64,000 nt of DNA from a virus, in the IMG/VR virus record IMGVR_UViG_3300020469_000021, positions 1-64,000 of that record, one strand, 5' to 3'. Shown one piece after another: positions 11,495 through 41,962 of the stretch. A program made the position numbers and the translations under genes. Numbering within the stretch: the stretch's first letter is position 1; every line of letters starts with the position of its first letter. The notes beneath the pieces were generated by a model. It worked only from the letters and a program-made list of their open reading frames with translations. It was not told the DNA's origin and searched no databases.

Positions 11495-12538
11495 ATGTAC
11501 GGACTAATAGGAACTAGCGAAATTCTTCTGGAAGAAGACTCCTCTAATGTTTTTCAAGGCATGACTCGTCGAGAATTTGACGAGCTAGGAAGTGAGGGTG
11601 GTGATGCGGAAGCGCTTTCAAAGCTTGAGAGTGTTATAAATCATAATCTATCCCTTACAAAGAAAATTATCTCTCATTGCGCAGAACTAGGCATCGTAAA
11701 CTATAGGCTTAGCAATTCAATTTTTTCTCTAGTTTCCGACCCAACTGTAAATATTTCGCTAGGAGATTTACCTTCCTACAACACCATAGTTGACAAGATT
11801 AAAGACATTGGTAAAGGCGCCAAGAGCGTAGGTATATCATTGTCAATTCATCCAGATGGATTTAACTCCTTGGCCAGCGAAGCCGAAGAAATATCTGAAA
11901 AAACTATTAAAGAGTTTAATTTTCATGCTTGGTTTTTGGACATTTTGGGCTGTCAACAAAATTTATCCTCGCCGATATGTATTGAGATCGGTGAGCAGGT
12001 TAGCGTAAACGACAAGGGTGAGTACTATCACGATGACTTCATACAATTTGTAGATAGATTTTATTCTTCATTTAAAAAATTAGACAAAGGCGCTCAACGC
12101 AGAATTGCTCTTGATTGCGATGATCAAGGAACTTGGAATTGCTACAGGTTATTCAAGTATTTTCATGTTTATTGCTTAGAAGAGTATGGGCACGGCTTTG
12201 CGTTGGTTTATGACAACCTTCATGATAAATGCAACCCCTCTGAGCTTGTAGACAAATCATTAGATCAAGAAGTTAACATAGGAGCTTTTCACGAGACATG
12301 GGGAGGAGTAATTCCTTTATTTCGCTGGAGCGAAGGGGTTTCGGGAACTGCAAAACACGCAGACTATCTTTCCACTCCAGTACCTACGTTTGATTATCAA
12401 ATCAAATGGGAATGCGATGTAAGAAAAGGCGATCTTGCAATTGCAAAAATGATGGAGCCTGAGCCAGAAGAAAAGCTTACAGAAGAAGAGCTAAGAAAGC
12501 TAACCAGAGAACGTTATAACGCAATCTATGACCAATGA
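11495..12538 (+). CDS. UV-damage endonuclease (UvdE) paralogue with altered metal ligands
   Basis: 347 aa, TIM-barrel UvdE family: GIVNYRLSNSIFSL, SIHPDGFNSLAS, FNFHAWFLDILG, LVYDNLHDKCNPSE and IKWECDV are the expected blocks in order. Against the second copy at 55324 and the known family, several positions differ. HPDQF has become HPDGF, the ligand Glu in the TIENED block is Asp (ALDCDD), and the His in VFHWSEG is Arg (LFRWSEG). The enzyme nicks 5' of UV photoproducts; here catalysis may be lost or changed. A 12-residue acidic C-terminal extension follows. Overlaps the next gene by 11 bases. Confidence 0.75.
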   Translation: MYGLIGTSEILLEEDSSNVFQGMTRREFDELGSEGGDAEALSKLESVINHNLSLTKKIISHCAELGIVNYRLSNSIFSLVSDPTVNISLGDLPSYNTIVDKIKDIGKGAKSVGISLSIHPDGFNSLASEAEEISEKTIKEFNFHAWFLDILGCQQNLSSPICIEIGEQVSVNDKGEYYHDDFIQFVDRFYSSFKKLDKGAQRRIALDCDDQGTWNCYRLFKYFHVYCLEEYGHGFALVYDNLHDKCNPSELVDKSLDQEVNIGAFHETWGGVIPLFRWSEGVSGTAKHADYLSTPVPTFDYQIKWECDVRKGDLAIAKMMEPEPEEKLTEEELRKLTRERYNAIYDQ

Positions 12539-13987: not shown

Positions 13988-14425
13988 GGGGGTGTTCTGG
14001 ATTCGACTGATGTTGGATTCTAGCGCTGCAAGCCGGAGATGTGTCAGGCTCCGATATCAAGACACAAAGCTGTACATGGCGAAGGTTATGATAGCATTGA
14101 AGAGCTTCTTGAAGCTGCTCGCGAAGAGTACGATAATCTCGTACAATTCGAGCAAGCTGAAGAGCTTGAGATGGTAGCTTAAGGCTGCCCCCTCGCTTTT
14201 ATTGACGCAGATATTTAAAATGCGAGGACGACATCTGCAAAAACAGAAAAGGTTTACCTGTTAATAAACTGTATCGCTGAGTATTCGGAGACCTCATTTT
14301 GAGTGAATAATTGTAACAGGGAGTTGGATGTCAATATCATAACTTTAAAAAAAATTGACTAAACTTGTAGATGTGCTAGCTTGAAAGCACTCAGGACGCG
14401 GGTTCAACTCCCGCCACCTCCACCA
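13988..14425 (+). ncRNA. ssrA: Transfer-messenger RNA (tmRNA)
   Basis: 438 bases. The 5' end GGGGGTG pairs with CACCTCC (14415-14421) with one G-U, followed by the discriminator A and encoded CCA. The 3' side has the T arm GGGTTCAACTCCC. Pseudoknot PK1: CGGAG/CTCCG (14034-14038/14049-14053) interleaved with GTGTC/GACAC (14041-14045/14061-14065). A second knot is CCTCGC/GCGAGG (14191-14196/14222-14227) with GCAGAT/ATCTGC (14207-14212/14233-14238). It rescues stalled ribosomes and tags the nascent chain. Phage-borne tmRNAs are known but uncommon; this one is long because of its tag frame. Confidence 0.95.
14078..14182 (+). other. tmRNA tag reading frame, 34 residues
   Basis: Exactly 12 bases after PK1 a GGC codon opens a frame that ends at TAA (14180-14182). 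The peptide starts GEGYDSIEEL, is mostly acidic and helix-prone, and ends EELEMVA. Usual tags have about 8-20 residues and end in LAA or similar. The alternative frame starting one base later gives a basic peptide ending in LRW and is less likely. Confidence 0.7.
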
Positions 14426-14436
14426 TTTTCAAAAAA

Positions 14437-16479
14437 ATGTATTTTCTTTTTGTGAAGTTTTTATTATTATTTTTTCTTACCTCTATTTTTTGTTTTGGTT
14501 CCACCCTTTATTTTAAGGATGGAAATTCTGTTGAGGCTAAAATATTAGACGCGAATGATACTCACGTGAGAATTGCTAAGGATAAAGACCTGCAGCAATT
14601 TAGATTTAAAATAGAAGCCTTAACGATTGATAGTCAAAAACAAATTGAGCTATACCACTCCAAAGATAGGTATAGCTCTATACCTTCTTCAAAAATACCT
14701 TTGGACAAAAGAATTTTAAATAGCTATGTTGCATATATTGATGAGCTTATTGATCAAAATTTAAGAAGCAAACGCTTGCAGAAGACCAAACCTTTGGATG
14801 ATTACTCCTACGCAAGAAGGCTTTATCTTACGGTTGTAGGAAGAATACCAACGCAGGATGAATTATTGTCTTTTATTAATGACAGAGACTCATCTAAAAA
14901 AGATAAATTAATACAAAAATTATTAAATTCATCAGGTTATACAAATCACCAGATTAATTGGTGGAGCGATATGCTTAGAGTTAAAGACAGAATTAATGGC
15001 TCAAATATAAATGTAGGTTCTGTTTATAGAAAATGGCTTAGAAACTCAATTGAATCAAAAAAACCTTACGATCAAATGGTTAGAGAGTTAGTTGGGAGCA
15101 GTGGAAAACTTTTAGATGGCGGAGAAGCTATAAGTTATTATTTGCGAGATCGAGGCATGCAGGAAGACAATCTTTCACATACAATAAGAATTTTTCTGGG
15201 AACTAGGCTTGAATGCGCAATGTGTCATAATCACCCATTTGACAAATGGAGTCAGCGTCAATTCTATGAAATGACTGCTTTCACATCAGGTATCGGCAAT
15301 GTTAGACTTAGAGACCAAGGGAAAGCAATAGGCAGCCTTAGTCGAGCCATTAATGAAGATGGAGATGTAAACGCTGGGCTTTTTAATAACTGGAGAAATA
15401 TAGTAAGAGATTCGATTCAATCAGGAATTGAAAACAATGGAACAGGCACAATAAAACTTCCCATAGATTTTGCGGAAGACGACGGTAAGCCCGGAGATAC
15501 TATTTTTGCCAAGGCAATTTTTACCCCAAAACCTACAAAAGTTATTGAGGGTAATAGCAGAAAAGTTTTTGCAGACTGGCTGGCAAGCAAAGACAACCCC
15601 AGATTTACCACTATGATTGCGAACAGAGTTTGGAAAAGAATTTTCGGCGCCGGATTAATAGAACCCATAGATACTATGATGGACGACACGGTAGCAAGTA
15701 ATCAAAAACTAATGAAGTACTTAGAGCGCCTTTTAGTTTCAGTTAATTATGACTTAAGAGAGTATGAAAGAATTCTTTTGAATACTAAACTATTTCAAAG
15801 GTCTGCCAAAAAACAAGATTACAAAAGCCTTGAAGAATATAATTTTGAAGGGCCAATTCTAAGAAGAATGACGGGGGAGCAGCTTTGGGATTCTTTAGTC
15901 ACTTTAGTTTACAATAATATAGACTCTGCCGAAAGAGTTTATTTATACAACCAACAAGATTATTCGGTAATTTACCATCGATATAAAGATATGACTGGAG
16001 AACAGATTTATGCAGACTTCAAAAAACTTGCTCAAGAAAATGATGGCAACAGGAATTTGCTAGCAATTTTAAGCACTTATCAAACTAACAATAAAAATTT
16101 TAAAGACAAAAGTTTAGTTCGCAGCAGTTACTTGCCATATCCTGCTCCGGGAGGACATTTAATTAGGCAGTTTGGGGGTAGCGACAAAGAACAAATAGAC
16201 AATAGTAATGCAGAGCCCAACACGACTCAAGTGTTGAATTTGCTAAATGGGTTTGTCGAGTCAAACATTTTAAATAAAAAGGATGCAGATTTTATAATTA
16301 AAATGCAATCAGAAAAAAGCAAACAAAAACAAGTAGAAAATGCTTTTCTCTCAATTTTATCGAGAAAACCCATGTCGAACGAATCGACATTACTTAAAAA
16401 ATATGTCGATGAAAAGAATGGATTTAAACATGTATCTTGGATTCTTTTAAATGCACACGAATTTATATTTATTAAATAG
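14437..16479 (+). CDS. Exported DUF1549/DUF1553 (PSCyt2/PSD1) protein of PVC bacteria type
   Basis: 680 aa. N-terminal signal peptide (about 1-22, LLLFFLTSIFCFG), a short beta domain, then DUF1549 (about 85-300) with ARRLYLTVVGRIPTQDE and the signature CAMCHNHPFDKW (C260, C263, H264, H266). DUF1553 follows (about 370-680) with FADWLASKDNPRFTTMIANR and RRMTGEQLWDSLV. CxxCH is also the c-type haem motif. In Planctomycetota and Verrucomicrobiota such genes are paired with DUF1501 genes, as here (11 bases apart), and are linked to degradation of complex polysaccharides. Biochemical role unproven. Starts 11 bases after the tmRNA CCA. Presence in a phage is highly unusual. Confidence 0.85.
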   Translation: MYFLFVKFLLLFFLTSIFCFGSTLYFKDGNSVEAKILDANDTHVRIAKDKDLQQFRFKIEALTIDSQKQIELYHSKDRYSSIPSSKIPLDKRILNSYVAYIDELIDQNLRSKRLQKTKPLDDYSYARRLYLTVVGRIPTQDELLSFINDRDSSKKDKLIQKLLNSSGYTNHQINWWSDMLRVKDRINGSNINVGSVYRKWLRNSIESKKPYDQMVRELVGSSGKLLDGGEAISYYLRDRGMQEDNLSHTIRIFLGTRLECAMCHNHPFDKWSQRQFYEMTAFTSGIGNVRLRDQGKAIGSLSRAINEDGDVNAGLFNNWRNIVRDSIQSGIENNGTGTIKLPIDFAEDDGKPGDTIFAKAIFTPKPTKVIEGNSRKVFADWLASKDNPRFTTMIANRVWKRIFGAGLIEPIDTMMDDTVASNQKLMKYLERLLVSVNYDLREYERILLNTKLFQRSAKKQDYKSLEEYNFEGPILRRMTGEQLWDSLVTLVYNNIDSAERVYLYNQQDYSVIYHRYKDMTGEQIYADFKKLAQENDGNRNLLAILSTYQTNNKNFKDKSLVRSSYLPYPAPGGHLIRQFGGSDKEQIDNSNAEPNTTQVLNLLNGFVESNILNKKDADFIIKMQSEKSKQKQVENAFLSILSRKPMSNESTLLKKYVDEKNGFKHVSWILLNAHEFIFIK

Positions 16480-16490
16480 AAAGTTATATT

Positions 16491-17762
16491 ATGAAAATTT
16501 TAGATGAATTATCTCGCAGACAATTTGCAAAAGAAATAGCCAAGAGTTACCTTGGTGTCAGCGCCCTCGTTTATGGTTCTGAAATTATAGCTAAAACAAC
16601 AAAAATACCAACTGCTCGGCACGTTATTTTTCTAAATATGAGAGGAGGCATGACTCACATAGACACTTTCGACCCTAAGCCTGAAAATAAAGATGTCATG
16701 GGAGATACTACCGCCATAAATACTTCTGCAGATGGCATACAGCTAGGCAATTGGCTCCCTAAAACTGCTCAACAAATGCATCTCGCTTCTTTAGTTAGGT
16801 CTGTTAATAGTAATCAGGGGGCGCATGAACAAGCAAACTATTTGCTTCATACCAGCTATCAAAAAAGAGGCACAATTATTCATCCAAGCATGGGAAGCTG
16901 GGTTAGCAAAGTTTGTGGTAAACTAAATAAAACTCTGCCTGACAACGTAAAGATTAATGGCGGTAGCGGCATCATAGGAGCTGGTTATTTTGAAAGCAAG
17001 CATGGCCCGCTGCCATTAGGCGACCCAAATTCCGGCATACAGAATGTAAAGAAGTCTGATTATGTTCAAGAAAATTTATATCATCAACGCCTAGACGCCG
17101 CAGACACTCTTAACAAAAAATTCTCAGAATCTTTTCCTCAAAAACAAGTAAGAGCTTATTCAGATCTATATGATAATGCAATTAGCTTAATGAAGAGTAA
17201 AGATTTAGAAGCTTTCGACTTAAGCAAAGAGCCTGAATCGCTTAGAGATAAATATGGCAGAGATAATTTTGGCCAAGGTTGTCTTTTAGCTAGGAGGCTA
17301 GTAGAAAATAAAGTTAGATTTGTCGAAGTTTCTTATGGAGGCTGGGATATGCACAATGACGTTTTCGGAAACATGGAAACAAGAGGTGCAGTTTTAGATG
17401 CAGGCTTGAGTTCTTTACTGGAAGATTTAAGTTTAAGGGGTCTACTTTCTGACACGATGGTTGTCGTAGCAAGCGAGTTTGGAAGAACTCCAGAAGTTAA
17501 AGCTGGTAGGGTAGGAAGGGACCACCACCCCTCTGCATTTAGTGTCTTATTTGCTGGGGGAGGAGTAAAACAAGGCTTTGTCTACGGTCAGTCTGATGAT
17601 AGAGCCCATTATGTAGAAGAAAATGGGGTTGATGTTCCATCTATAAATGCCACCATCGCACATGCGATGGGCCTAAGCATAGAGAAAATTACATACTCTC
17701 CTAGCGGCAGGCCATTTAAAGTCTCAAATGGAGAGCCTCCAATTTTCGACATTTTATCTTGA
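16491..17762 (+). CDS. DUF1501 protein with Tat signal (alkaline-phosphatase-like superfamily)
   Basis: 423 aa. The N-terminus has a twin-arginine export motif SRRQFAK (8-14) and a hydrophobic stretch. Metal-site blocks of the phosphatase/sulfatase-like fold are present: RGGMTHIDTFDPKP (51-64), GGWDMHND, VVVASEFGRTP and GRDHHPS. DUF1501 enzymes accompany DUF1549/1553 proteins in PVC genomes and are thought to be hydrolases, possibly on sulfated or phosphorylated glycans. All expected metal ligands appear intact, so the copy is probably functional. The stop codon TGA lies inside the -35 box of the next promoter. Confidence 0.85.
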   Translation: MKILDELSRRQFAKEIAKSYLGVSALVYGSEIIAKTTKIPTARHVIFLNMRGGMTHIDTFDPKPENKDVMGDTTAINTSADGIQLGNWLPKTAQQMHLASLVRSVNSNQGAHEQANYLLHTSYQKRGTIIHPSMGSWVSKVCGKLNKTLPDNVKINGGSGIIGAGYFESKHGPLPLGDPNSGIQNVKKSDYVQENLYHQRLDAADTLNKKFSESFPQKQVRAYSDLYDNAISLMKSKDLEAFDLSKEPESLRDKYGRDNFGQGCLLARRLVENKVRFVEVSYGGWDMHNDVFGNMETRGAVLDAGLSSLLEDLSLRGLLSDTMVVVASEFGRTPEVKAGRVGRDHHPSAFSVLFAGGGVKQGFVYGQSDDRAHYVEENGVDVPSINATIAHAMGLSIEKITYSPSGRPFKVSNGEPPIFDILS

Positions 17763-27954: not shown

Positions 27955-28794
27955 ATGAAAAATAAAAAACAAAAATGGTGGAAAAATAAATTCTCATCCA
28001 CAATAGTATTAAAAACTTTCTTATTTAAGGTGGAGCTCTCTGGCAACGCCGATGGCGGCATATTAATATTCAAATCACTTCTATCTAAAACACCAAGCGC
28101 TTTCCTTAAATTAGACCCTGAAATAATAATGAAATTCGCAAATGATGTCTGCATGAAAATGCATAGATTTGGCGAAATTGAAAGTATACCCGAAGATAAA
28201 ATTATAAACTTACATGAAAATTACTTCTGCGCAGAGACGATAAGAGACATTTATTCAAATATCATCTCAGACCTACAGGCTGACAACAGCGGACACAGAA
28301 CAAATAATATTGTTTCATTCGGTCACGTGTTGAAAAATAAGCCTGAAAGAATAAAATACATTGAAATGTGTGAAAACTCTGCTTTTTTAGACTATATACC
28401 AACTAAAAAATTTAATACATATTCTAAAGATACTGCGGAATTCAAAAGCGTATTAGATCTAAAAAAGAGTCATAAATATTTCATTGACCTAGCAGGCCAT
28501 ACCTACAGTACTAAATCATATCTATTTCTTGCGTCTAAAAGAGTTTACTTTTCTTCCGAGCATCCTGAGGTTTTTGAATGGGAAAAAAACCACCTAAAGC
28601 CTTGGGAAAATTACGTTCCAGTTAAAAGCGATCTTTCAGATCTTATGGATAATTATCAAATCATAGAGTCAGATCCAAAACTATATGAAAAAATTATTCA
28701 AAACAATATTAATTTATTACAAAACCAAATCTCTCCAGAATTAATGCTAGATCAAGTAATAAAAAAAATTGCATCTCATGTAAAATTTGCGTGA
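27955..28794 (+). CDS. GT90 (CAP10)-like glycosyltransferase
   Basis: 279 aa. The C-terminal block KYFIDLAGHTYSTKSYLFLA, RVYFSSEHPEVFEWEKNHLK and PWENYVPVKSDLSDLMDN follows the CAP10/GT90 pattern (KYxxDLxGxxxS...EWxxxxLxPWxHYVPVxxDLSDL). Eukaryotic relatives add xylose or glucose to capsules and proteins. Basic N-terminus with no signal peptide. Four-base overlap with the next gene. Confidence 0.65.
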   Translation: MKNKKQKWWKNKFSSTIVLKTFLFKVELSGNADGGILIFKSLLSKTPSAFLKLDPEIIMKFANDVCMKMHRFGEIESIPEDKIINLHENYFCAETIRDIYSNIISDLQADNSGHRTNNIVSFGHVLKNKPERIKYIEMCENSAFLDYIPTKKFNTYSKDTAEFKSVLDLKKSHKYFIDLAGHTYSTKSYLFLASKRVYFSSEHPEVFEWEKNHLKPWENYVPVKSDLSDLMDNYQIIESDPKLYEKIIQNNINLLQNQISPELMLDQVIKKIASHVKFA

Positions 28795-30305
28795 ATATTT
28801 CTCTCTATACGCTGCTAATCCCAAGAATGGAGCTTCCATTCATCGAAGAATGGATTGAGCATCACCTAAGTCTTGGGGTGGATAAAATCTATATCTATAA
28901 TAACGGCGACGCCCCCTCTGATAGCGATGAATATCTACAGGCTGGAGCTAGAGAATTATCAAGGCAAGAAAAAAATATTAAGTGGGCAAAAAAACCAGAC
29001 GCAGAATATTGTTTAGAACTTACTTCTGAAGAAGCGCTAAAACAACTTAATAAAATACTCGAAAAGTACAAAGGCAAAGTTTTTTTAAAATCTTGGATAT
29101 ATGGCAAAGATCATTCTACTGCATATCCAGAATCACAAATTACTGGTTACAAAAATTGCGCGGAAAATAACTATTCGGATTGGTGGCTATTCATGGATGT
29201 AGATGAATTTTTGTTTTTAAATAAACATAAGAATATAAAAAGTTTTTTATCCGATCAGCCAGATTCTAACCACAGCTTAAGATTAGAATTTCCTCAGAGA
29301 GTCTTCAATAAAAGAGTTAAAGAAAAATCGGTTAGAAAAATATTCGACTGGGGCTACGATCATTTGACTCAATTCAAATCTATGATTAAAGGCATCAAAT
29401 TTAGAGATGGCAATGACATTTGCGATGTACACAGTATAGGAGGCGAATGCGTAGAGAGCATTGCGGTACCTTTTGAAGTTGCAAGGTACCACCATTATAG
29501 AGGAGATCCTAGCAAAATGGGCGGTCCAGCGCACAGGCGCATGGGAAAAGTTAGTTTTAACAAATTTGATATTTCAATGTCCAAATACTTCCAAAAAACT
29601 GGCATAATAACCCCCATCATTGGAGATGCCTACGACAGTCAAGTTAGGCTTGGCATGATATCTAAAAACATTTATTGCAGAAGAAATAAATACGAATTGA
29701 TCATCCCCAAAAAAAAAGAATACGAAAAAATTCAAGACCCAAATAAGCGCCCCGGCTGGGTTAAAGTAGATTGCTTGATAGAAAACTACTATAAATACAA
29801 TCTTCTTTTTCTGAGCGACGCAGATGTTTGTATTATGAATTTTGACTTTAACCTTGAAAATTTAGCGAAAGAATTTACAGAAGAAAAACTTATGTTAATC
29901 ACAAAAGATCGCAACGGAATAAACAGTGGCAATGTTTTAATTAAAGGAGGGAGTCAAATAATGTACTACTATCTAAACAGGTGGCGAAATCTACTTGGAG
30001 GTCAATATAAATATGTAGGATATCAAGACCAACCCGCTTTATCTTATATGATTCATGAGACTGATTTTAAAAAACATGTCAAGATAGTCGACCAGTCTCT
30101 AATCAACAGTTACCCTAAAAATATAGCCCACAAAGGAGACAAAGCTTACAAAGATGGGGATTTCTTAATTCATTACGCTGGATACAATACTAGCCCTCAA
30201 GAAGAGGAGCTTAATTTATCAAAAGCTATGGAAAAAGATTTCCATAAGTCCATGGGCATTAACAATGTAAGCTGTAAAGAGATCATAGAATCCAAAAATT
30301 ACTAG
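28791..30305 (+). CDS. Two-domain glycosyltransferase: GT92-like plus GT34-like
   Basis: 504 aa. Residues 1-300 are GT92/DUF23-like: FIEEWIEHHLSLGVDKIYIY, WWLFMDVDEFLF (DxD) and ARYHHYRGDP. Residues 310-500 resemble GT34/GMA12-MNN10: RPGWVKVDCLIENYYKY, LLFLSDADVCIMN (DxD), NSGNVLIKGG, YQDQPALSYMI and FLIHYAGY. Both catalytic centres look intact, so one chain may add two sugars in sequence. Both families are mainly known from eukaryotes. No export signal; the enzyme would act in the cytoplasm. Confidence 0.7.
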   Translation: MNISLYTLLIPRMELPFIEEWIEHHLSLGVDKIYIYNNGDAPSDSDEYLQAGARELSRQEKNIKWAKKPDAEYCLELTSEEALKQLNKILEKYKGKVFLKSWIYGKDHSTAYPESQITGYKNCAENNYSDWWLFMDVDEFLFLNKHKNIKSFLSDQPDSNHSLRLEFPQRVFNKRVKEKSVRKIFDWGYDHLTQFKSMIKGIKFRDGNDICDVHSIGGECVESIAVPFEVARYHHYRGDPSKMGGPAHRRMGKVSFNKFDISMSKYFQKTGIITPIIGDAYDSQVRLGMISKNIYCRRNKYELIIPKKKEYEKIQDPNKRPGWVKVDCLIENYYKYNLLFLSDADVCIMNFDFNLENLAKEFTEEKLMLITKDRNGINSGNVLIKGGSQIMYYYLNRWRNLLGGQYKYVGYQDQPALSYMIHETDFKKHVKIVDQSLINSYPKNIAHKGDKAYKDGDFLIHYAGYNTSPQEEELNLSKAMEKDFHKSMGINNVSCKEIIESKNY

Positions 30306-30348
30306 TTAGATTTTTGGGGCGCTTGCAATATTTGGTGTATACATATGT

Positions 30349-30495
30349 ATGAGTGATTATGATTACAGAAAAAGAGTGGAACTTGAAGATAGAATTAAGT
30401 TCCTATTAAATGAGAATAAAAAACTTCAAAACGAATTATCAATTTTAAAATCGTCAGTCAAGTGTGGCTGCGACAAAAATAAGGCAAAAAAATGA
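30349..30495 (+). CDS. Short coiled-coil protein, 48 aa
   Basis: ELEDRIKFLLNENKKLQNEL is a clear heptad pattern; ends in CGCDKNKAKK. A TATACA at 30339-30344 lies five bases before the ATG. ATGA overlap with the lipoprotein gene. Confidence 0.5.
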   Translation: MSDYDYRKRVELEDRIKFLLNENKKLQNELSILKSSVKCGCDKNKAKK

Positions 30496-30614
30496 AGAAA
30501 TATATCGCTATTTTATTTGGCATCTTAGTATCCGCATGCAGTTCTCCCAAAGCTGCCTGCGAATGCAGTAATGAATGCGTCGATTGTGATAACTGCAAAA
30601 ATTGCAGTTGCTAA
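30492..30614 (+). CDS. Cys-rich small lipoprotein, 40 aa
   Basis: Signal sequence KYIAILFGILVSAC with a lipobox (LVSAC) followed by only 24 residues, eight of them Cys (CECSNECVDCDNCKNCSC). It would be anchored in a membrane facing outwards and could bind metal or form disulfides. 15 bases before the subtilase gene, so perhaps a partner of it. Confidence 0.55.
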   Translation: MKKYIAILFGILVSACSSPKAACECSNECVDCDNCKNCSC

Positions 30615-30629
30615 TCTTAAATAATCAAA

Positions 30630-31838
30630 ATGAAAAAGAAAACTTCCCTCCCAGACTTTAAAGTCGAAGAGGTCTTCACTTCGCTTTCTCAATCTCTTGA
30701 CTGGAGTTTGAAATATCAGAATATTCCAGACACTTGGAAAGTAACTCAAGGAGAAGGAGTAACTATTGTCGTAATAGATACAGGCATGCCTGATCACGAA
30801 GACATAGGGGACAATGCAATAGAAGGCGAAAATTTTATACAAGAAGAAGATATCTTTGATTATAACGGACACCAGACTCATTGCGTAGGAATAATCTGCG
30901 CCAAGAATAATAAAAAGGGTTATGTAGGTGTAGCGCCCAAAGCTAAATGCATATGCATAAAAGCTTTAAGCAAAAATGGTTCAGGCAGCTACCAAGGTTT
31001 AGTCAATGCGCTTGAGGCCGCAAAACAACTTAAGCCAGATATTATATCTATGTCTCTTGGTGGCTCAGCTCCAGCGCCTAGAATGGAAAAAATTATAAAA
31101 CAATTAACCGATGATATGCACATTCCTGTCGTTTGCGCTGCGGGTAATTCCGGGTTCGGTGGAGTAAATTATCCAGCTGCTTTTGAATCTACTATAGCTG
31201 TCGCAGCCTATGACAAATACGGAAGAGTATCTTCTTTTTCTTCTCGCGGTCCAGAAGTAGACTGGGCGGCGCCCGGCTCTAATATATCTAGCACTTTTTT
31301 AAATAATTCCTATGCATCGCTTAGTGGAACCTCAATGGCTTGTCCTTTTATCGCTGGAGTTATTGCCTTAATGATTTCGAAACATAGAAAACAAGAAAAA
31401 GAAACAGGTAAAAATGATTGTAAAACAGTAGCTCAAGTTAAAGAGCATTTGTTAAAATACACCAATGATAAAGGCACTATAGGCAGAGATAATGACTGGG
31501 GCTACGGAGTGATAGATGTTAAAAAAATGATCACAGAAGGAGAGCCCGAGCCAAAGCCCGAGCCAAAGCCCGAGCCAAAGCCCGAGCCAAAGCCCGAGCC
31601 AAAGCCCGAGCCAAAGCCCGAGCCAAAGCCAAAACCTTTACCTGTAAAACCTCCTCCTTCTCCACAAAAACCTTCCTTTTGGAAAAAAAATATAGCATGG
31701 GTGGTTGTAGGTATTTTTGCACTTGCTTTTATCGGTGGGATAATATATAGCTTAGTATCTGATGTTTCAGCTAAAGAATCAGATCTTAATAAAAAAATTA
31801 TAAACGATCTCCCCTTGATGGAGATTCCGAAAAAGTAA
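30630..31838 (+). CDS. Subtilisin-like serine protease with Glu-Pro-Lys-Pro stalk and C-terminal membrane anchor
   Basis: 402 aa. Catalytic triad in the S8 motifs: D50 (VVIDTGMPDHED), H81 (GHQTHCVGI) and S235 (SGTSMACPF); the oxyanion Asn is in AAGNSG. No signal peptide. After the domain comes a stalk of EPKP units (about 307-334), a Pro-rich link and a transmembrane helix (about 355-376, WVVVGIFALAFIGGIIYSLV) with a short tail, so it is probably tail-anchored with the protease in the cytoplasm, or exported by another route. Possible roles: prohead protein processing, or cleavage of host proteins. Intact. Confidence 0.85.
   Translation: MKKKTSLPDFKVEEVFTSLSQSLDWSLKYQNIPDTWKVTQGEGVTIVVIDTGMPDHEDIGDNAIEGENFIQEEDIFDYNGHQTHCVGIICAKNNKKGYVGVAPKAKCICIKALSKNGSGSYQGLVNALEAAKQLKPDIISMSLGGSAPAPRMEKIIKQLTDDMHIPVVCAAGNSGFGGVNYPAAFESTIAVAAYDKYGRVSSFSSRGPEVDWAAPGSNISSTFLNNSYASLSGTSMACPFIAGVIALMISKHRKQEKETGKNDCKTVAQVKEHLLKYTNDKGTIGRDNDWGYGVIDVKKMITEGEPEPKPEPKPEPKPEPKPEPKPEPKPEPKPKPLPVKPPPSPQKPSFWKKNIAWVVVGIFALAFIGGIIYSLVSDVSAKESDLNKKIINDLPLMEIPKK
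31548..31631 (+). repeat. 12-base tandem repeat encoding EPKP
   Basis: Seven units GAGCCAAAGCCC, all but the last identical in DNA, encode the protease stalk. Identity at third codon positions points to recent expansion or slippage. Confidence 0.9.
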
Positions 31839-31909
31839 TTTTAGCAAAAGTCAAATCGTTTTAGCTTATATGCTTGCGCTTGGCTTAATTTTAGGAGGAG
31901 AACTATAAA

Positions 31910-32029
31910 ATGAAAAAATTTTTAAAAGATTTGCTGGCTCCTTTGGCGTGCTTTTTGGGCATTCTATTGGGATATATATTGATAATGATAGGCTTACTAA
32001 TGACGATTAAAACACTTTCAGAACTCTAA
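31910..32029 (+). CDS. Small membrane protein, 39 aa
   Basis: A strong Shine-Dalgarno AGGAGG (31893-31898) decides this start. Two overlapping hydrophobic segments (PLACFLGILLGYILIMIGLL). Function unknown. Confidence 0.5.
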   Translation: MKKFLKDLLAPLACFLGILLGYILIMIGLLMTIKTLSEL

Positions 32030-32048
32030 TACTTGTGTAATTATATTT

Positions 32049-32453
32049 GTGAGTGATAAAAAATTAAAACACAAACATTTATTAGTGAACGCTACTTTTC
32101 AAAACACGCCTTTTGTCTGTGTCGATTTTACTGAATCTTGGATCAAAATGCTGGTTAAAAAGATAGGCATGGAAATACTTTATGCGCCAAAAGCGGTAAT
32201 CTGCGATAAAGAATACAACGAAGGCATAAGTGCATTTTGCCTTATTACAACTAGTCATATAAGTTTACATTCTTGGGAAAAATCTAATCCAAATTTAGTC
32301 CAACTTGATGTTTATAGTTGTAAAAATTTCGATCAAAGCGTCATTTTAAATGAATTGAATAAATTTAATCCTTTATTTTTGGGTTGTAAATTTCTTGACA
32401 GAGAAATAGAAAATACAAAAGGCTGGAGAATGTTTGGCGAAGATTTGGCATGA
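32049..32453 (+). CDS. Divergent S-adenosylmethionine decarboxylase-like pyruvoyl enzyme
   Basis: 134 aa, GTG start. The SpeD fold is recognisable by LITTSHISLHSWEKSNP and LVQLDVYSCKNFD. The residue before the self-cleaving Ser69 is Thr instead of Glu (TTSHIS against ESHLS in the copy at 18341). Some SpeD homologues, including phage ones, have been shown to decarboxylate arginine or ornithine instead of AdoMet, so a changed substrate is plausible. Overlaps the ATE-like gene by four bases; the three genes 32049-33677 form one coupled unit. Confidence 0.7.
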   Translation: MSDKKLKHKHLLVNATFQNTPFVCVDFTESWIKMLVKKIGMEILYAPKAVICDKEYNEGISAFCLITTSHISLHSWEKSNPNLVQLDVYSCKNFDQSVILNELNKFNPLFLGCKFLDREIENTKGWRMFGEDLA

Positions 32454-33232
32454 GAATATATTTCAGACATTATTCTGGGGCAATCATGGAATACGATTAT
32501 CTTTTTTTTGACTGCATGGCTCGCGTTCCTGCGGAAGATGAGGATAAAGCATTAGTTGAAGGCTGGTTACCAGATGACTATTTTAACCCTAAAAATGATG
32601 AAAAATCCCATTGGTATCAAGCTAGACAAACAAGAATATGCTTAAGTAAATTTCTAGATAGCAAAAGCAATAAAAAGACAAGAAAAAAATGCAAAAACAT
32701 ATCAACTAAAGTCATTAGGGCGCAAGATGTGAATATGGATATCTTGAATTCTATTTTTGAGAAATATATAAAATATAGAAATTTTAAACCTTGGAAGCTT
32801 GAACCCCTAATTGAGCTAGAAGTAGATCGTAAATTTTTTATAATATACTACGCTAACTCATCGGAAGGTGGTCTGCATAACCCAATAGCATTTACATATA
32901 TGAGAGACGTAGGAAGTAATAGCGTATTTTCCACACAATTTGCTTGGGATTACGCAAACCCCAAATTATACCTTGGCAAATATGCGAACCTAGCAGAAAT
33001 AGACTACTGCATTAAAAACAATAAAGAATACATGTATGTAGGCGCAGGATACGAAAATTGTTGTGCATATAAAGCAGATTACGCGGGCTTTGAGTTCTGG
33101 ACAGGAGAAAAGTGGTCAGATGATTCGGATCACTACCGCTGGCTATGCGAACGCGACTCGAAGGTCGAAAAAACTAAAGATTTAGATAAAATAAAGAAGT
33201 ACGATGATAAAAATTTTTTTATAAATGATTGA
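32450..33232 (+). CDS. ATE-like protein (arginyl/leucyl-tRNA-protein transferase superfamily)
   Basis: 260 aa. WYQARQTRICLSKFL followed by a basic stretch, then YIKYRNFKPW, FAWDYANPKLYLGKYANLAE and YMYVGAGYENCCAYKADYAG reproduce the order of the C-terminal half of arginyl-tRNA-protein transferases (ATE1/Bpt), a GNAT-like fold. Such enzymes add an amino acid from tRNA to protein N-termini and so mark them for degradation. The N-terminal Cys cluster of ATE1 is absent. Target unknown. Coupled on both sides by overlapping stop and start codons. Confidence 0.55.
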   Translation: MRIYFRHYSGAIMEYDYLFFDCMARVPAEDEDKALVEGWLPDDYFNPKNDEKSHWYQARQTRICLSKFLDSKSNKKTRKKCKNISTKVIRAQDVNMDILNSIFEKYIKYRNFKPWKLEPLIELEVDRKFFIIYYANSSEGGLHNPIAFTYMRDVGSNSVFSTQFAWDYANPKLYLGKYANLAEIDYCIKNNKEYMYVGAGYENCCAYKADYAGFEFWTGEKWSDDSDHYRWLCERDSKVEKTKDLDKIKKYDDKNFFIND

Positions 33233-33677
33233 GGATTACATAGAATATGTTTCACTAAAGAGAAAAGAGCTTGGCGGCCATGCAATTTGCCCTTTTGCAA
33301 AACCTTTTCTTGATAAAATTCAAATAATAGAATCGGCTGACATTTGGCAAGATGCGGTAAAGTGCATGAGCAATGAAGAACATCCAATGCTTTATTTATT
33401 GTATGCAGATAAAGATAAATATGATACAGATTGGCTAGATTGGTTTTGTTCCATTCATGAGAAATATTCTAGGAATAGAGATCTTTGGTTAATTTGGGAT
33501 CACCCCGACCAAATTAATAAAATTAATGGTATAAAAACCAGCAACAATGAATATGCAATTCTTTTCATACAACCTCTGTCGGAATTGAACAAATACGCAG
33601 ATCGATTAAGCAAGACAAATTACTATAGTTTTTGGGATAAAGACTATTACTTAAAAATTGTTAAAAATAGAAATTAA
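33225..33677 (+). CDS. Hypothetical protein with CPFAKPF motif (DUF1415-like, tentative)
   Basis: 150 aa. GGHAICPFAKPFLDKI near the start resembles the CPFA motif of DUF1415 proteins, which are of unknown function. Asp/Trp-rich middle (TDWLDWFCSIHEKYSRN). Last gene of the SpeD-like/ATE-like unit. Confidence 0.4.
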   Translation: MIEDYIEYVSLKRKELGGHAICPFAKPFLDKIQIIESADIWQDAVKCMSNEEHPMLYLLYADKDKYDTDWLDWFCSIHEKYSRNRDLWLIWDHPDQINKINGIKTSNNEYAILFIQPLSELNKYADRLSKTNYYSFWDKDYYLKIVKNRN

Positions 33678-33703
33678 ATACTTTAATTTTTTATAAGTTT
33701 GTG

Positions 33704-33709
33704 TATAAT
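33704..33709 (+). promoter_or_regulatory. TATAAT -10 element for 33718, preceded by GTG
   Basis: TGTG-TATAAT with the ATG nine bases downstream; no convincing -35. Same GTGTATAAT arrangement as at 11482 and 59683. The AT-rich inverted repeat just before (ATTAAA..TTTAAT plus T run, 33674-33692) may be a weak terminator. Confidence 0.45.
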
Positions 33710-33717
33710 AAATTGAT

Positions 33718-34386
33718 ATGAAAGAACTAGACTTTAGTCAAGAAATTAGGGCTCAGCTCAGAGATGCTGAAGGCACTGAAGAAGAATTAACGCAAGAAGC
33801 TTGGGCTGCCGAAGAAAATAAAGGCAAAAAACTTAACAAACCTTTTAGAACTCCCAAAGGCCCAAAGAAATTTTCTGTATATGTCAAAAATGAAAAAGGC
33901 AACGTAGTTAAAGTTAATTTTGGCGATCCAAACATGGAGATAAAACGTGATAGCCCTGAGCGCAGAAAAAGCTTCCGAGCTAGGCATAATTGTGACAATC
34001 CCGGCCCCAAAACTAAAGCTCGTTATTGGAGCTGTAAAATGTGGAGCAAAAATAGTGTAAAGAAAGTAACAAAAGGAGAAGAAGATCACGAAGATGAAAT
34101 GGTTGAATTTCTTGATGAGTCAGATGCTAAAGGCAAAGGCTTGTGGCATAACATTCGAGAAAAAAAGAAAAGGGAAGGCAAGAATTACAGACCTGCAAAA
34201 CCCGGAGACAAAGATTATCCAGATCCCAAATCTTTAAAAAAAGCTCAAGAATCCTCAAAGAAAAAGAAAAAGAAAGAGAAGTCTAAGGCTGAACACGAGG
34301 GAGGTTACCCACCTAATTGCAAACCGGGTTATATGGAAAAAGATGGGCAGTGCGTCCCTAAACCTTCTGCAGATAGCAAAAAGTAA
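33718..34386 (+). CDS. Virion-associated protein with conserved RRKSFRARHNC motif (DUF5872-like)
   Basis: 222 aa, very basic and partly disordered. FSVYVKNEKGNVVKVNFGDP and MEIKRDSPERRKSFRARHNC, then KARYWSCKMWSK, form a block seen in the head-core or vertex-linked proteins of many myoviruses. KGKGLWHNIREKKKREGKNY and a second Cys-containing segment near the end (NCKPGYMEKDGQCVP) follow. Structural role likely; good evidence that the window is phage DNA. Confidence 0.65.
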   Translation: MKELDFSQEIRAQLRDAEGTEEELTQEAWAAEENKGKKLNKPFRTPKGPKKFSVYVKNEKGNVVKVNFGDPNMEIKRDSPERRKSFRARHNCDNPGPKTKARYWSCKMWSKNSVKKVTKGEEDHEDEMVEFLDESDAKGKGLWHNIREKKKREGKNYRPAKPGDKDYPDPKSLKKAQESSKKKKKKEKSKAEHEGGYPPNCKPGYMEKDGQCVPKPSADSKK

Positions 34387-34392
34387 ACTTTT

Positions 34393-34758
34393 GTGCAGAA
34401 AAAAAACACTATTTTTTGCGATATTGACGGCACTCTATTTAAGTATAGAAAATTTGAGACTTATTTAAGTTCCAAACCACAGCTTTTATTTGGGGTCAAA
34501 AAAAAATTAGATTATTGGCGCGAGTGCGGACATATGATTATATTAACTACCGCTCGTCCAGAATATTTGAGAGATCACACAATTCAAGAGCTTGCTGAAC
34601 ACAATCTTCCTTATGATAGGCTTATAATGGAAATTGAAAGAGGCCCAAGATTTTTAATCAATGATATGGATCCTGCAAAGCCCGGAGCTAGGGCAATAGG
34701 AATAGATCTTCAAAGAGATGAGGGTTTGGGTTCAATTCAGTGGCCTAAAGGTATGTAA
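34393..34758 (+). CDS. HAD-like phosphatase, 121 aa
   Basis: GTG start. FCDIDGTLFK is the DxDGT nucleophile motif, ILTTARPEY carries the motif II Thr, and FLINDMDP the terminal acidic residues. Small capless HAD enzymes of this type in phages dephosphorylate sugars or nucleotides, or polynucleotide 3' ends. Six bases after the virion protein. Confidence 0.65.
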   Translation: MQKKNTIFCDIDGTLFKYRKFETYLSSKPQLLFGVKKKLDYWRECGHMIILTTARPEYLRDHTIQELAEHNLPYDRLIMEIERGPRFLINDMDPAKPGARAIGIDLQRDEGLGSIQWPKGM

Positions 34759-34837
34759 TCTCTTAAATTACTTTTTTGTGTAAATATCTCCGATTATATT
34801 TTATAATAAATTATATTAACATTTAATTAAATTTAAA

Positions 34838-34976
34838 ATGACAGACAAATCTAAATCTAAAACAAAAACAGAAGCTCCCGCAGAGGAAGTGAAAGTTACT
34901 TCTCCAGAAGCTGGAGTCCAAAAGCCTGTTTCTACGCCTGCAAAAGGGCAAAGACTTAAAGGTCGCTGGGTTTAAG
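34838..34976 (+). pseudogene. Small gene with a one-base frame break
   Basis: ATG at 34838 opens a Lys/Glu/Pro-rich frame (MTDKSKSKTKTEAPAEEVKV) that, read straight on, ends at 34960 with a Cys-rich tail of odd composition. Skipping one A in the five-A run at 34920-34924 continues as KPVSTPAKGQRLKGRWV to a stop at 34974-34976, matching the composition of the first part. Either a sequencing/assembly indel, a frameshift or a dead gene. Confidence 0.4.
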
Positions 34977-34993
34977 AACACAATATATTATCC

Positions 34994-35022
34994 TTGACTT
35001 TTTTCTTGGATTGTGTTAATAT
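34994..35022 (+). promoter_or_regulatory. Leaderless-type promoter for 35030, extended -10
   Basis: TTGACT (34994-34999), 17-base spacer, TGt-TAATAT (35017-35022); the ATG follows eight bases after the -10. Confidence 0.8.
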
Positions 35023-35029
35023 AGTTTAT

Positions 35030-35272
35030 ATGACTATAGCTGTTTCTGTTTGTGAAGAATTCTCTAGCGACATTTGTGTGTCGACTATTATGTATCAAGC
35101 CGAAAGCGACGCTCAAACTCAATGCGAAGAGATTAAATGTAAGCTAGGCATCAGCTATTTGACTGCGTTAATAGAAAGAATGGCTCAAATTGGCTATTGC
35201 TGCACTCAGGTTCAAAAAGATTTGCGGCTTGATAGTTGCACAGTTTGGTTCGAACCGATTAGTATAAAATGA
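35030..35272 (+). CDS. Hypothetical Cys-rich protein, 80 aa
   Basis: Six Cys residues (VCEEFSSDICVS, QCEEIKCKLG, YCCTQV) spread over a predicted helix-strand fold. Start set by the promoter. Four-base overlap with the next gene. Confidence 0.5.
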   Translation: MTIAVSVCEEFSSDICVSTIMYQAESDAQTQCEEIKCKLGISYLTALIERMAQIGYCCTQVQKDLRLDSCTVWFEPISIK

Positions 35273-35463
35273 AATCAAAACCTAAACAAAAAAAATCAGA
35301 GAAACAAATTGTTAGAGATTTTAACAGTAAATATAATACTCAGGCAGGAAAAGGAGACCAACCTCGAAACATTTTTTCGGAGCAGTACAGGGAAAATTTT
35401 GATTCAATCTTTTGCAAAAATTCAAAAACCAAAAAAAATATTCGACATAGGAATAAGTTATAG
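35269..35463 (+). CDS. Small basic protein with AGKGDQPRN motif, 64 aa
   Basis: The segment TQAGKGDQPRNIFSEQYREN is a motif of short phage proteins of unknown function often found near replication genes. Strong positive charge. Confidence 0.5.
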   Translation: MKSKPKQKKSEKQIVRDFNSKYNTQAGKGDQPRNIFSEQYRENFDSIFCKNSKTKKNIRHRNKL

Positions 35464-35630
35464 TGGACGATAGACAAAAGAAATATGCCCTAACAGAATC
35501 GGGAAAAAAAGCTCTTACGCGCGCGCGTAAGAAATATGATGAAGAAAATTTAGAAAAACGGAGGCAGCAAAAACGAGACTATATGCGAAAAAAAAGACTT
35601 GAAAATCCAAGTTATTGTAAGTGGAAATAA
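35463..35630 (+). CDS. Basic helical protein, 55 aa
   Basis: GTG start sharing a base with the upstream stop. KRRQQKRDYMRKKR indicates nucleic-acid binding; family unknown. Contains the GC-rich self-complementary ACGCGCGCGT (35518-35527). Confidence 0.4.
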   Translation: MDDRQKKYALTESGKKALTRARKKYDEENLEKRRQQKRDYMRKKRLENPSYCKWK

Positions 35631-35636
35631 ACATTA

Positions 35637-36557
35637 ATGAAGTTTTTTATTTACAAGGAAAATTTAAATTTCTGCGCAGAAAATGCCGCCCAAAAATATG
35701 CAAAAGAGATTATTGAAGCTTTAAAAAACACGACCCACGAAGAAACTTTAGACCCACTAGAAGCAAAAGTTTTTTTTACAAATATTTCTAACGAAAGAAA
35801 TTATGAAAAATTTACCTCTTCAGGTTTTGGAGAATTAAAGCCGATCAATTATTTAAAAATTTGCCAAAAAGTTGTTTCATCAAAATATTTAGAACTTGGC
35901 CCGCATTTCACTTTTTTTCATCGGCTAGATAACAAAGATTATTACCCCGTATTAAACCACAAAAATGTAGTCAATATCCCTTATCATAATCCAAATTTTC
36001 AGCCTCTTAAGGATTTTATCATATCTCCCCCTGCGATAAAAAAAGTTTCTTTTAATGATAGTCTACTAAAGCGTTTTCTGCTTTCTTTTAAAGGCCACTG
36101 GGGAATAAGAAGTATTAAAGGGCGAGATCACAGGTGGGGCTGTCTAGATAAAATCTCTAAGTTAAATAACGATCACATTATAATTATAGATAGCAAAGAT
36201 GACCGACATAATTATATTGATTTAATGAGTAATTCTCTCTTTTCTTTAATTACCGAGGGAGATGAACCTTGGTCCTACAGATTAAGCGAAGCTATATGTG
36301 CTGGATCAATTCCTGTGTTATTGGAAAAAGATTGGCACAACCTTCCATATAGTAACATCATAAATTATGATAATTTTATTATAAAAATAAATTATTTAAA
36401 TCCAGAAATGGTATACAGTGCAATTATGAACTGTTCTCTGGAAGAGATATCTACAAAAATTAAATACATGAAATCGATTAGACATTTATTTTCGTCAAGA
36501 AGAGATCAAATGCAATTGCTCTTAGATTTTTATGAAAAATATCAAGATAATGCTTGA
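35637..36557 (+). CDS. Exostosin-like glycosyltransferase (GT47 type)
   Basis: 306 aa. The C-terminal block SLFSLITEGDEPWSYRLSEA / ICAGSIPVLLEKDWHNLP is the donor-binding signature of exostosin/GT47 proteins. The N-terminal half is less conserved. GT47 enzymes are mostly eukaryotic and build heparan or plant wall glycans, and also occur in giant viruses. The stop TGA (36555-36557) lies inside the next -35 box. Confidence 0.65.
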   Translation: MKFFIYKENLNFCAENAAQKYAKEIIEALKNTTHEETLDPLEAKVFFTNISNERNYEKFTSSGFGELKPINYLKICQKVVSSKYLELGPHFTFFHRLDNKDYYPVLNHKNVVNIPYHNPNFQPLKDFIISPPAIKKVSFNDSLLKRFLLSFKGHWGIRSIKGRDHRWGCLDKISKLNNDHIIIIDSKDDRHNYIDLMSNSLFSLITEGDEPWSYRLSEAICAGSIPVLLEKDWHNLPYSNIINYDNFIIKINYLNPEMVYSAIMNCSLEEISTKIKYMKSIRHLFSSRRDQMQLLLDFYEKYQDNA

Positions 36558-36582
36558 CAGAAGATTGTTTTTTTGTTAATCT
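36554..36582 (+). promoter_or_regulatory. Promoter for 36600, extended -10
   Basis: TTGACA (36554-36559), 17-base spacer, TGt-TAATCT (36577-36582). Leader about 11 bases. Confidence 0.75.
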
Positions 36583-36599
36583 TTTACTAAATAGTAAAA

Positions 36600-37424
36600 A
36601 TGATATTAGTAACTGGCCATAAAGGATATATAGGGAGTCACCTATACAAAAAAGTTAAAATGCTAGGTAAACCTGTAGTAGGAATTGACTTAAAAGATGG
36701 AGAAGATTTGAATGAACGATTGCCTGATGGCGATTTTGATTTTGTATTTCATTTTGCGGCGCTTCCTAGAGTTGAAATGTCTGTGGAATCACCGAGCTAT
36801 ACTTTAAAGCAAAATGTTCTATCTACTTCTAGACTTCTAGAGTGGAGTAAAGACCATGGGGTAAAAAGGTTTATTTTTTCTTCTTCTTCTGCAATCATGG
36901 GGCATGGAGACGGAGTTCCCTTATCTCCCTACGGACTACATAAACGAATGTCAGAGATGGAGTGTGAGCTTTATTCTCGCATATATGATCTTGACACAGT
37001 TTGCTTGAGATATTTTAACGCGTATTCTGAAGATCAGCCATATGGAGGAGCTTATACTACTGCAATTGCAGCTTGGATGGAAAAAATAAGGAGTTGTGAT
37101 CAATTAAGAATGGACGGAGACGGAGAACAGACCAGAGACTTAGTTCATGTTGAGGATATTGTATCTGCTAATATTTTTGTGATGAACAGTGAGCAAAAAT
37201 TTAATGGAAAATATTTCAATGTCGGATCTGGAGAAGCTGTATCAATGAACTATATCAAAAACTATATTGACGAGTACAATAAAGGCGTTTCTTGGAAATA
37301 TGCTTTAGCGAGAAAAGGTGATGCGAGAAATACTCTTGCAGACATATCAGAACTAAAAGCTTTAGGATGGGAACCAAAGGTAAGTATTGAAGAAGGGTTA
37401 AAGAGGTGTTTTAATGCGAGTTAG
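36600..37424 (+). CDS. NAD-dependent nucleotide-sugar epimerase/dehydratase
   Basis: 274 aa, extended SDR family: ILVTGHKGYIGSHL (GxxGxxG for NAD), FVFHFAALPRV, the catalytic SSSS...SPYGLHK (Tyr-x-x-x-Lys), RYFNAY and TRDLVHVEDI, as in UDP-glucose 4-epimerase. Shorter than GalE (about 330). It probably supplies a nucleotide sugar to the glycosyltransferases here. Confidence 0.8.
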   Translation: MILVTGHKGYIGSHLYKKVKMLGKPVVGIDLKDGEDLNERLPDGDFDFVFHFAALPRVEMSVESPSYTLKQNVLSTSRLLEWSKDHGVKRFIFSSSSAIMGHGDGVPLSPYGLHKRMSEMECELYSRIYDLDTVCLRYFNAYSEDQPYGGAYTTAIAAWMEKIRSCDQLRMDGDGEQTRDLVHVEDIVSANIFVMNSEQKFNGKYFNVGSGEAVSMNYIKNYIDEYNKGVSWKYALARKGDARNTLADISELKALGWEPKVSIEEGLKRCFNAS

Positions 37425-37590
37425 ACAGCGTAGAGAGCCTACCCCATGCGAGCAGTACTCAGTTAATATTAACAAAGAAGATTTGATTAATATCTATGTT
37501 AAAGAATGGGTATTGAAATGGTGCAAGAAATATCACCCAGAAGCTTTTGATGAAGCAGAAAAATTTGTCAAAAATAATCTTGACAATTAA
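37414..37590 (+). CDS. Hypothetical protein, 58 aa
   Basis: Overlaps the epimerase end by 11 bases. Lys/Glu-rich with WVLKWCKKYHPEAFDEAEKF. The last codons contain the -35 of the next promoter. Confidence 0.45.
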   Translation: MRVRQRREPTPCEQYSVNINKEDLINIYVKEWVLKWCKKYHPEAFDEAEKFVKNNLDN

Positions 37591-37608
37591 ATTTTTTTGT
37601 GCTAATAT
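37580..37608 (+). promoter_or_regulatory. Leaderless-type promoter for 37618, extended -10
   Basis: TTGACA (37580-37585), 17-base spacer, TGc-TAATAT (37603-37608); the GTG start follows ten bases after the -10. Confidence 0.8.
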
Positions 37609-37617
37609 TTAAGAATA

Positions 37618-39025: not shown

Positions 39026-39029
39026 TTTT

Positions 39030-39311: not shown

Positions 39312-39322
39312 AATTCACTTAA

Positions 39323-39736: not shown

Positions 39737-39739
39737 TTT

Positions 39740-40541: not shown

Positions 40542-40542
40542 A

Positions 40543-41960: not shown

Positions 41961-41962
41961 AT

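What the first reader, a model, noticed from the sequence alone, without database searches (positions are those of the whole stretch)
13988..14425. tmRNA with a 34-residue acidic tag ending in MVA
The RNA is complete (acceptor stem, PK1, second knot, CCA). The resume codon predicted 12 bases after PK1 opens a frame of 34 codons, two to three times the usual tag length. The tag is acidic and helix-forming (GEGYDSIEEL... EELEMVA) and lacks the usual LAA end. Such a tag could deliver tagged peptides to a different protease or resist ClpXP, or may do more than mark for destruction.
Basis: partly seen in the sequence, partly recalled or inferred. Interest (0 to 1): 0.8.

Follow-up and report, generated by a model that had tools for sequence, protein, structure and literature searches.

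The report
Phage tmRNA with swapped long tag
This virus carries its own version of the bacterial RNA that frees stuck ribosomes, and it labels the rescued protein with a negatively charged helix of 34 amino acids, about three times the usual length; close relatives of the virus carry a completely different, positively charged long label, so the label is a part these viruses exchange.

Summary
The tmRNA is real and complete: it matches the whole Rfam RF00023 model at 109.6 bits, with four pseudoknots and CCA. The covariance model puts the resume codon on GGC 14078, 11 nt after PK1 with UA at -5/-4, as in E. coli. ARAGORN's 21-residue tag is the same frame started late.

The window's tmRNA belongs to a family of viral tmRNAs; I collected 65 distinct sequences. 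Tags are 19-21 aa in most members. Longer types are basic 31-33 aa (LALAA end), basic 38 aa (AVA end) and acidic 34, 40 and 41 aa. Substitutions in the long tags are biased to synonymous in this frame only.

The window's sister phage (97% marker identity, shared gene order) has the basic tag. The window's PK1-tag-PK2 cassette is instead 98% identical to that of a virus with unrelated flanks. Acidic-tag viruses are not one clade. So the tag cassette moves between viruses inside the gene.

Most likely it works with host SmpB in ordinary trans-translation and adds a helical degron. MVA resembles the degron variant LVA, so ClpXP resistance does not follow. What the extension does is open. This is a new variant of a known kind.

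The parts
13988..14425 (+). tmRNA gene (ssrA), one-piece, 438 nt, encoded CCA
   Evidence: Rfam RF00023 109.6 bits, whole model; ARAGORN
13988..13994 (+). acceptor stem 5' strand (pairs with 14415-14421; third pair G-U, the alanine identity element)
   Evidence: 12 of 12 relatives paired, G-U at the third pair in all
14034..14066 (+). pseudoknot 1 (stems 14034-14038/14049-14053 and 14040-14045/14061-14066)
   Evidence: 6 of 11 pairs with changes on both sides in relatives
14067..14077 (+). 11-nt spacer AAGCUGUACAU with U-A at -5/-4 of the resume codon
   Evidence: A at -4 in 65/65 and U at -5 in 64/65 family members; same spacing as E. coli in PMC2481249
14078..14182 (+). tag reading frame: resume codon GGC, 34 codons GEGYDSIEELLEAAREEYDNLVQFEQAEELEMVA, stop TAA
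   Evidence: CM alignment; frame conservation; translation
14173..14189 (+). P5 hairpin GGUAGC..GCUGCC with the stop codon in its loop, the usual place in tmRNA
   Evidence: fold of the region
14191..14238 (+). pseudoknot 2
   Evidence: two helices; 2 pairs of the first stem with changes on both sides; its GCAGAT/ATCTGC stem was the family search pattern
14243..14269 (+). pseudoknot 3
   Evidence: 95-96% of cells paired over 12 relatives
14322..14359 (+). pseudoknot 4
   Evidence: 5 of 10 pairs with changes on both sides, 100% paired
14034..14238 (+). PK1-tag-PK2 cassette exchanged between viruses
   Evidence: 201/205 aligned bases identical to L015 (no related flank) against 93/190 to sister phage L002 (columns 47-263)
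14437..16479 (+). PSCyt2/PSD1 (DUF1549/DUF1553) protein directly downstream; host clue, not part of the tmRNA
   Evidence: Pfam PF07583 1.4e-40 and PF07587 1.3e-30
16491..17762 (+). DUF1501 protein; host clue
   Evidence: Pfam PF07394 3.7e-109; in 9 of 20 related viral records

Best explanation
A phage-encoded one-piece tmRNA that acts in ordinary trans-translation with the host's SmpB, alanyl-tRNA synthetase and EF-Tu. A stalled ribosome accepts Ala-tmRNA, resumes at GGC 14078, adds alanine plus 34 residues and stops at TAA in the P5 loop. The stalled phage or host protein then carries a long acidic alpha-helix ending ELEMVA. I think it is a proteolysis tag whose last residues (MVA, like LVA) are read by a host AAA+ protease such as ClpXP, while the charged helix is a lead-in or adaptor-docking segment that varies between phages. 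The PK1-tag-PK2 cassette is exchanged by recombination within the gene, so near-identical phages carry tags of opposite charge. Shown here: RNA fold, reading frame, protein-level constraint, exchange. Inferred: expression, SmpB use, proteolysis, role of the helix.
For: Full RF00023 match and covariation in the stems. Resume codon fixed by the CM alignment, the 11-nt spacer and UA at -5/-4 (PMC2481249). Frame test: acidic 34-aa group, 18 distinct substitutions, 9 nonsynonymous against 13.2 expected, p 0.018; basic 31-aa group, 13 of 36 against 23.4, p 0.0006; other frames show no constraint and hold stops. The same N-terminal GEGYxSIEELLEAAREEY and C-terminal EELxMxA recur in 40- and 41-aa tags, and a 20-aa acidic tag GESYDSTEILSFEEDLAMAA exists in L093. 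All 65 tags end in Ala and 50 in LAA. Helix prediction. No SmpB in 20 viral records, so the host's would be used. Exchange: sister phage L002 has the basic tag; acidic-tag viruses rejected as one clade, AU p 5e-42.
Against: No expression or tagging data. The p-value for the acidic group alone is modest, from seven related sequences. The ELEMVA end has not been tested with any protease. The host and its protease set are unknown, so a match of tag to protease cannot be checked.
Confidence: 0.62

Rival explanations
1. The tag is not (only) a degron: the long helix stabilises, relocates or multimerises tagged proteins, or escapes the host's ssrA-protease route. Opposite-charge versions and their exchange would reflect a contest with host proteases or adaptors.
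For: Extreme length against 8-26 aa in 51 distinct ARAGORN-called tags of other viral tmRNAs and a bacterial mode of 10 aa (PMC11915505); charge from -11 to +11; exchange between sisters; continuous helix.
Against: Every tag still ends in Ala and most in LAA, as expected of degrons; MVA is close to LVA, a widely used degron variant (PMC9382460). Nothing ties the helix to a partner; no protease or adaptor gene tracks the tag type (ClpP family in 1 of 20 records; other proteases not searched).
Confidence: 0.2
2. The length is driven by the RNA: the mRNA-like arm grew a long hairpin between PK1 and P5, and the extra codons are its by-product, tolerated as long as the frame stays open.
For: The tag region folds well (z -3.2 against dinucleotide shuffles). 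All seven long acidic tags folded were more stable than their synonymous shuffles (z -1.1 to -2.3). The 20-aa L093 tag looks like the long one without an internal stretch.
Against: No compensatory pair in the hairpin (0 of 39). The synonymous-shuffle excess is weak (p 0.02-0.13, related sequences). Substitutions favour synonymous changes in the tag frame, and the 34-, 40- and 41-aa peptides align.
Confidence: 0.12
3. The true tag is ARAGORN's 21 residues, starting at GCT 14117.
For: ARAGORN output for the window and L015.
Against: It would put the resume codon 50 nt after PK1 without the UA motif. ARAGORN starts at the homologous GGC in relatives such as L002, L011 and L021. The CM aligns resume at GGC. 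The first 13 codons are conserved in the 40- and 41-aa tags.
Confidence: 0.03
4. A decoy or decayed tmRNA that titrates SmpB rather than tagging, as proposed for the tRNA-like-domain-only gene of mycobacteriophage DS6A.
For: DS6A precedent (PMC4131195).
Against: All four pseudoknots, the resume motif, an open constrained frame and the stop in the P5 loop are kept.
Confidence: 0.03

Closest known systems
Standard one-piece tmRNA (Rfam RF00023)
   Same: Acceptor stem with G-U, T arm, CCA, four pseudoknots, resume codon 11 nt after PK1 with UA at -5/-4, stop in the P5 loop
   Different: 34-codon tag (40-41 in relatives) against a most frequent length of 10 (PMC11915505); Gly resume codon GGC; 438 nt; end MVA rather than LAA
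Phage-encoded tmRNAs (mycobacteriophages Bxz1, Cali and others, Bacillus phage G, Streptomyces phages, huge phages, marine phage Melnitz)
   Same: A complete ssrA on a phage genome (PMC4131195, PMC7162821, PMC9004378; Streptomyces phage records)
   Different: No DNA match to this family in 50,697 phage records; tags sampled from other viral contigs are 8-26 aa; Melnitz is two-piece
Mesoplasma florum ssrA tag
   Same: A tag longer than E. coli's with a non-LAA end (NYAFA), read by Lon (PMC9382460)
   Different: Cellular; tag 27 aa (from memory), not acidic-helical; a dedicated Lon exists, whereas no matching protease is known here
Tag-end variants LVA, AAV, SVA of the E. coli ssrA degron
   Same: Ala/Val substitutions in the last three residues; MVA resembles LVA
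   Different: Engineered ends on an 11-residue tag

Membership tests
tmRNA (RF00023) | Covariance-model match over the gathering score, full length | tested here: met
   109.6 bits against 47, model 1-374
tmRNA (RF00023) | tRNA-like domain with acceptor stem, G3-U pair, T arm and CCA | tested here: met
   12 of 12 relatives paired, G-U at the third pair in all
tmRNA (RF00023) | Pseudoknots PK1-PK4 | tested here: met
   PK1, PK2 first stem and PK4 with compensatory changes; PK3 almost always paired; PK2 second stem misaligned by MAFFT (40% of cells paired) but present in each sequence found with the search pattern
tmRNA (RF00023) | Open tag frame beginning at the resume codon after PK1 | tested here: met
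tmRNA (RF00023) | Works with SmpB and is charged with alanine | not testable with these tools
   No SmpB gene in this or 19 related viral records; the host protein would be needed
Standard degradative ssrA tag | Short unstructured tag of about 10 residues | tested here: not met
   34 residues, predicted helix 7-33
Standard degradative ssrA tag | C-terminal LAA or a close variant | tested here: inconclusive
   MVA; last residue Ala, penultimate Val as in LVA (PMC9382460); ClpX contacts the last two alanines (PMC7652416)
Standard degradative ssrA tag | Tagged proteins are degraded | not testable with these tools
   Needs an assay

The most novel reading that the evidence does not exclude
These viruses keep tmRNA tags as exchangeable effector modules: charged helices of 31-41 residues, acidic or basic, swapped within the gene, that send the products of stalled ribosomes to different proteases or adaptors, or protect them, in a contest with the host. 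That would be a function of phage trans-translation beyond ribosome rescue.
Probability: 0.2. Interest if true: 0.85.

Novelty: new variant of a known kind. Interest (0 to 1): 0.6.

Why it matters
Tags of 31-41 residues lie outside the 8-26 aa found in a sample of 51 distinct viral tags (ARAGORN calls, six above 18 aa of which some look miscalled), and the published mode is 10 aa (PMC11915505). A viral family in which the tag changes length and charge and recombines independently of the rest of the genome gives a natural set of degron variants. It makes the open question of why phages carry tmRNA testable, by asking what the tag does to tagged proteins. It also shows that ARAGORN mis-starts or mis-frames long tags (window, L003, L015), so they are likely under-reported.

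Tried and rejected
DNA search of 50,697 phage records with the window tmRNA: no match. Searches with two short-tag relatives hit only the conserved 3' end. The tag peptides matched nothing meaningful in phages.

Halobacteriovorax as host: one related phage contig sits in a Halobacteriovorax MAG (L023), but that MAG's chromosomal tag is ANNDFAPAMAA. None of 290 other genomes of the phylum has the RNA signature, and PSCyt2 passes its cut-off in 2 of 78, so I do not accept it.

Alternative frame AKVMIALKSF...: no synonymous bias, and stops in relatives. SmpB encoded by the virus: not found. A virus ClpP matched to the tag: 1 of 20 records and not the window's.

The mycobacteriophage Bxz1 tag recalled from memory could not be checked: no record under either accession and no tblastn match; it is not used as evidence. 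One Rfam call failed for size. A first version of the codon test stopped with an error and was rerun.

Full report
WHAT IS THERE. The window is part of a 104,956-base virus record. Bases 13988-14425 (+) match Rfam RF00023 over the whole model at 109.6 bits, and ARAGORN reports the same ends. I named the acceptor stem, part of P2, PK1-PK4 and the T arm in the sequence and counted them on an alignment of 12 relatives: 91.8% of cells pair, 14 of 61 pairs show changes on both sides, none of 500 shuffles reach that number, and sliding the partners destroys it. PK2's second stem is counted low only because MAFFT shifts it; its two strands were part of the search pattern that found the family. The third acceptor pair is G-U in all 12, the alanine identity element (established knowledge).

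WHERE TRANSLATION RESUMES. The covariance model lays its consensus resume codon GCA on GGC 14078. PK1 ends at 14066, leaving 11 bases. In E. coli the spacer is also 11 bases and U85-A86, five and four bases before the resume codon, set the frame (PMC2481249). Here U and A stand at -5 and -4. Across 65 distinct family members A is at -4 in 65 and U at -5 in 64; the starts in that table were found with short motifs, so the independent supports are the model alignment, the spacing and the frame. The frame gives GEGYDSIEELLEAAREEYDNLVQFEQAEELEMVA, 34 codons, net charge -11, with the stop in the P5 loop. ARAGORN's 21-residue tag is the same frame begun 13 codons late.

IS IT A READING FRAME OR CHANCE? 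Seven distinct acidic 34-codon tags hold 18 distinct substitutions, 9 of them nonsynonymous against 13.2 expected (p 0.018). Nine distinct basic 31-codon tags hold 36, 13 nonsynonymous against 23.4 (p 0.0006). In the other two frames there is no such deficit (p over 0.7) and stops occur. The sequences are related, so these p-values are guides. Independent support comes from the 40- and 41-codon acidic tags (L035, L073), which keep GEGYNxxEELLEAAREEY at the start and EEL.MAA at the end with a different middle.

THE FAMILY. A pattern over PK2 found 85 stretches in IMG/VR. Tag lengths in 65 distinct RNAs: 19-21 aa, 44; 31-32 aa, 10; 34 aa, 7; 38 aa, 2; 40 and 41 aa, one each. L038, cut at its 3' end, has 33. 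Ends: LAA 50, MVA 7, MAA 5, AVA 2, LVA 1. Net charge runs from -11 to +11. L093 carries a 20-aa acidic tag, GESYDSTEILSFEEDLAMAA, which shares its first codons with the long acidic tag, so the long acidic tag probably arose by gain of an internal stretch, or the short one by loss. As background, 51 distinct ARAGORN tags from other viral contigs range from 8 to 26 aa with a mode of 10, and the published mode for tmRNA is 10 (PMC11915505). The habitats of the contigs were not checked.

EXCHANGE. The sister phage L002 shares gene order with the window over the 14 kb compared (most proteins about 80-97% identical) and is its sister on a tree of the nucleoside-deoxyribosyltransferase-like marker (97% identity, support 99/92). 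Yet L002 has the basic tag GAKNRVRALGFKNRIAAKRFGFKSRKLALAA. DNA identity falls only inside the tmRNA. From PK1 to PK2 the window is 201/205 identical to L015, whose available flanks share nothing with the window region compared, and 93/190 identical to L002; in the PK3 segment it is nearer to L002 (32/34 against 29/34). On the marker tree the five acidic-tag viruses are rejected as one clade (AU p 5e-42), and tag classes need at least 9 changes. I read this as recombination inside the gene that swaps the tag cassette.

HOW IT PROBABLY WORKS. No SmpB was found in 20 related viral records, many of them fragments, so host SmpB is probably used. Trans-translation would add alanine plus the tag. 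AlphaFold2 predicts one helix, residues 7-33, for the acidic tag (pLDDT 91.6) and a helix with lower confidence for the basic tag (77.8); single charged peptides often give helices, so this is weak support. ClpX reads mainly the last two residues (PMC7652416), and LVA is a widely used degron variant (PMC9382460), so MVA is compatible with degradation. I therefore favour a degron with a variable charged lead-in. What the extension does, whether adaptor docking, spacing, escape from a host adaptor, or a passenger of an RNA hairpin, is not settled. The hairpin is somewhat more stable than synonymous shuffles but shows no compensatory change.

HOST. Directly downstream are PSCyt2/PSD1 and DUF1501 proteins. 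PSCyt2 and PSD1 were named planctomycete-specific and occur 41 times each in Rhodopirellula baltica (PMC2754498). DUF1501 is in 9 of 20 related records, but also in two of the control genomes. I infer a planctomycete or verrucomicrobial host with moderate confidence. Halobacteriovorax is not supported.

NOVELTY. tmRNA on phages is known (PMC4131195, PMC7162821, PMC9004378), as are longer-than-usual tags with unusual ends (Mesoplasma, PMC9382460). I found no report of tags of 31-41 residues or of tag-cassette exchange in the papers I could search, which do not include most subscription journals or the tmRNA database itself. Hence: a new variant of a known kind.

Noticed in passing
14437-17762: A PSCyt2/PSD1 protein followed by a DUF1501 protein, families typical of planctomycetes, encoded by a phage right after the tmRNA; DUF1501 is in 9 of 20 related viral records. 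Their role in infection is unknown.
   Followed up: partly
L039, L064 (38-aa tags; L039 lies in record G015): A separate basic 38-aa tag AKSKLVNGLLDRFNPSKRVATRKVVARKSVARQLTAVA with an Ala resume codon; L060 and L089 carry a close variant. Record G015 also encodes a ClpP-family protein (possibly a prohead protease).
   Followed up: no
L129, L183: Other viral tmRNAs with 21-aa ARAGORN tags beginning GNTFAKL, perhaps another phage lineage with Gly-start tags.
   Followed up: no
L024, L025, L026 (genome G001): A Halobacteriovorax MAG carries three different tmRNAs (tags GAKNRVRAL...LALAA, ANNDFAPAMAA, ANNNDNFEYALAA), so it holds at least one phage contig.
   Followed up: partly
27955-42754: A run of glycosyltransferase, epimerase and FkbM methyltransferase genes, with a subtilase at 30630-31838 whose C-terminal part matches the low-complexity PARP repeat model.
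   Followed up: no
11495-12538: UvdE-type UV endonuclease encoded by the phage (PF03851, 3e-24).
   Followed up: no
14272-14311: Extra hairpin between PK3 and PK4 present in some family members and absent in others (for example L002).
   Followed up: no
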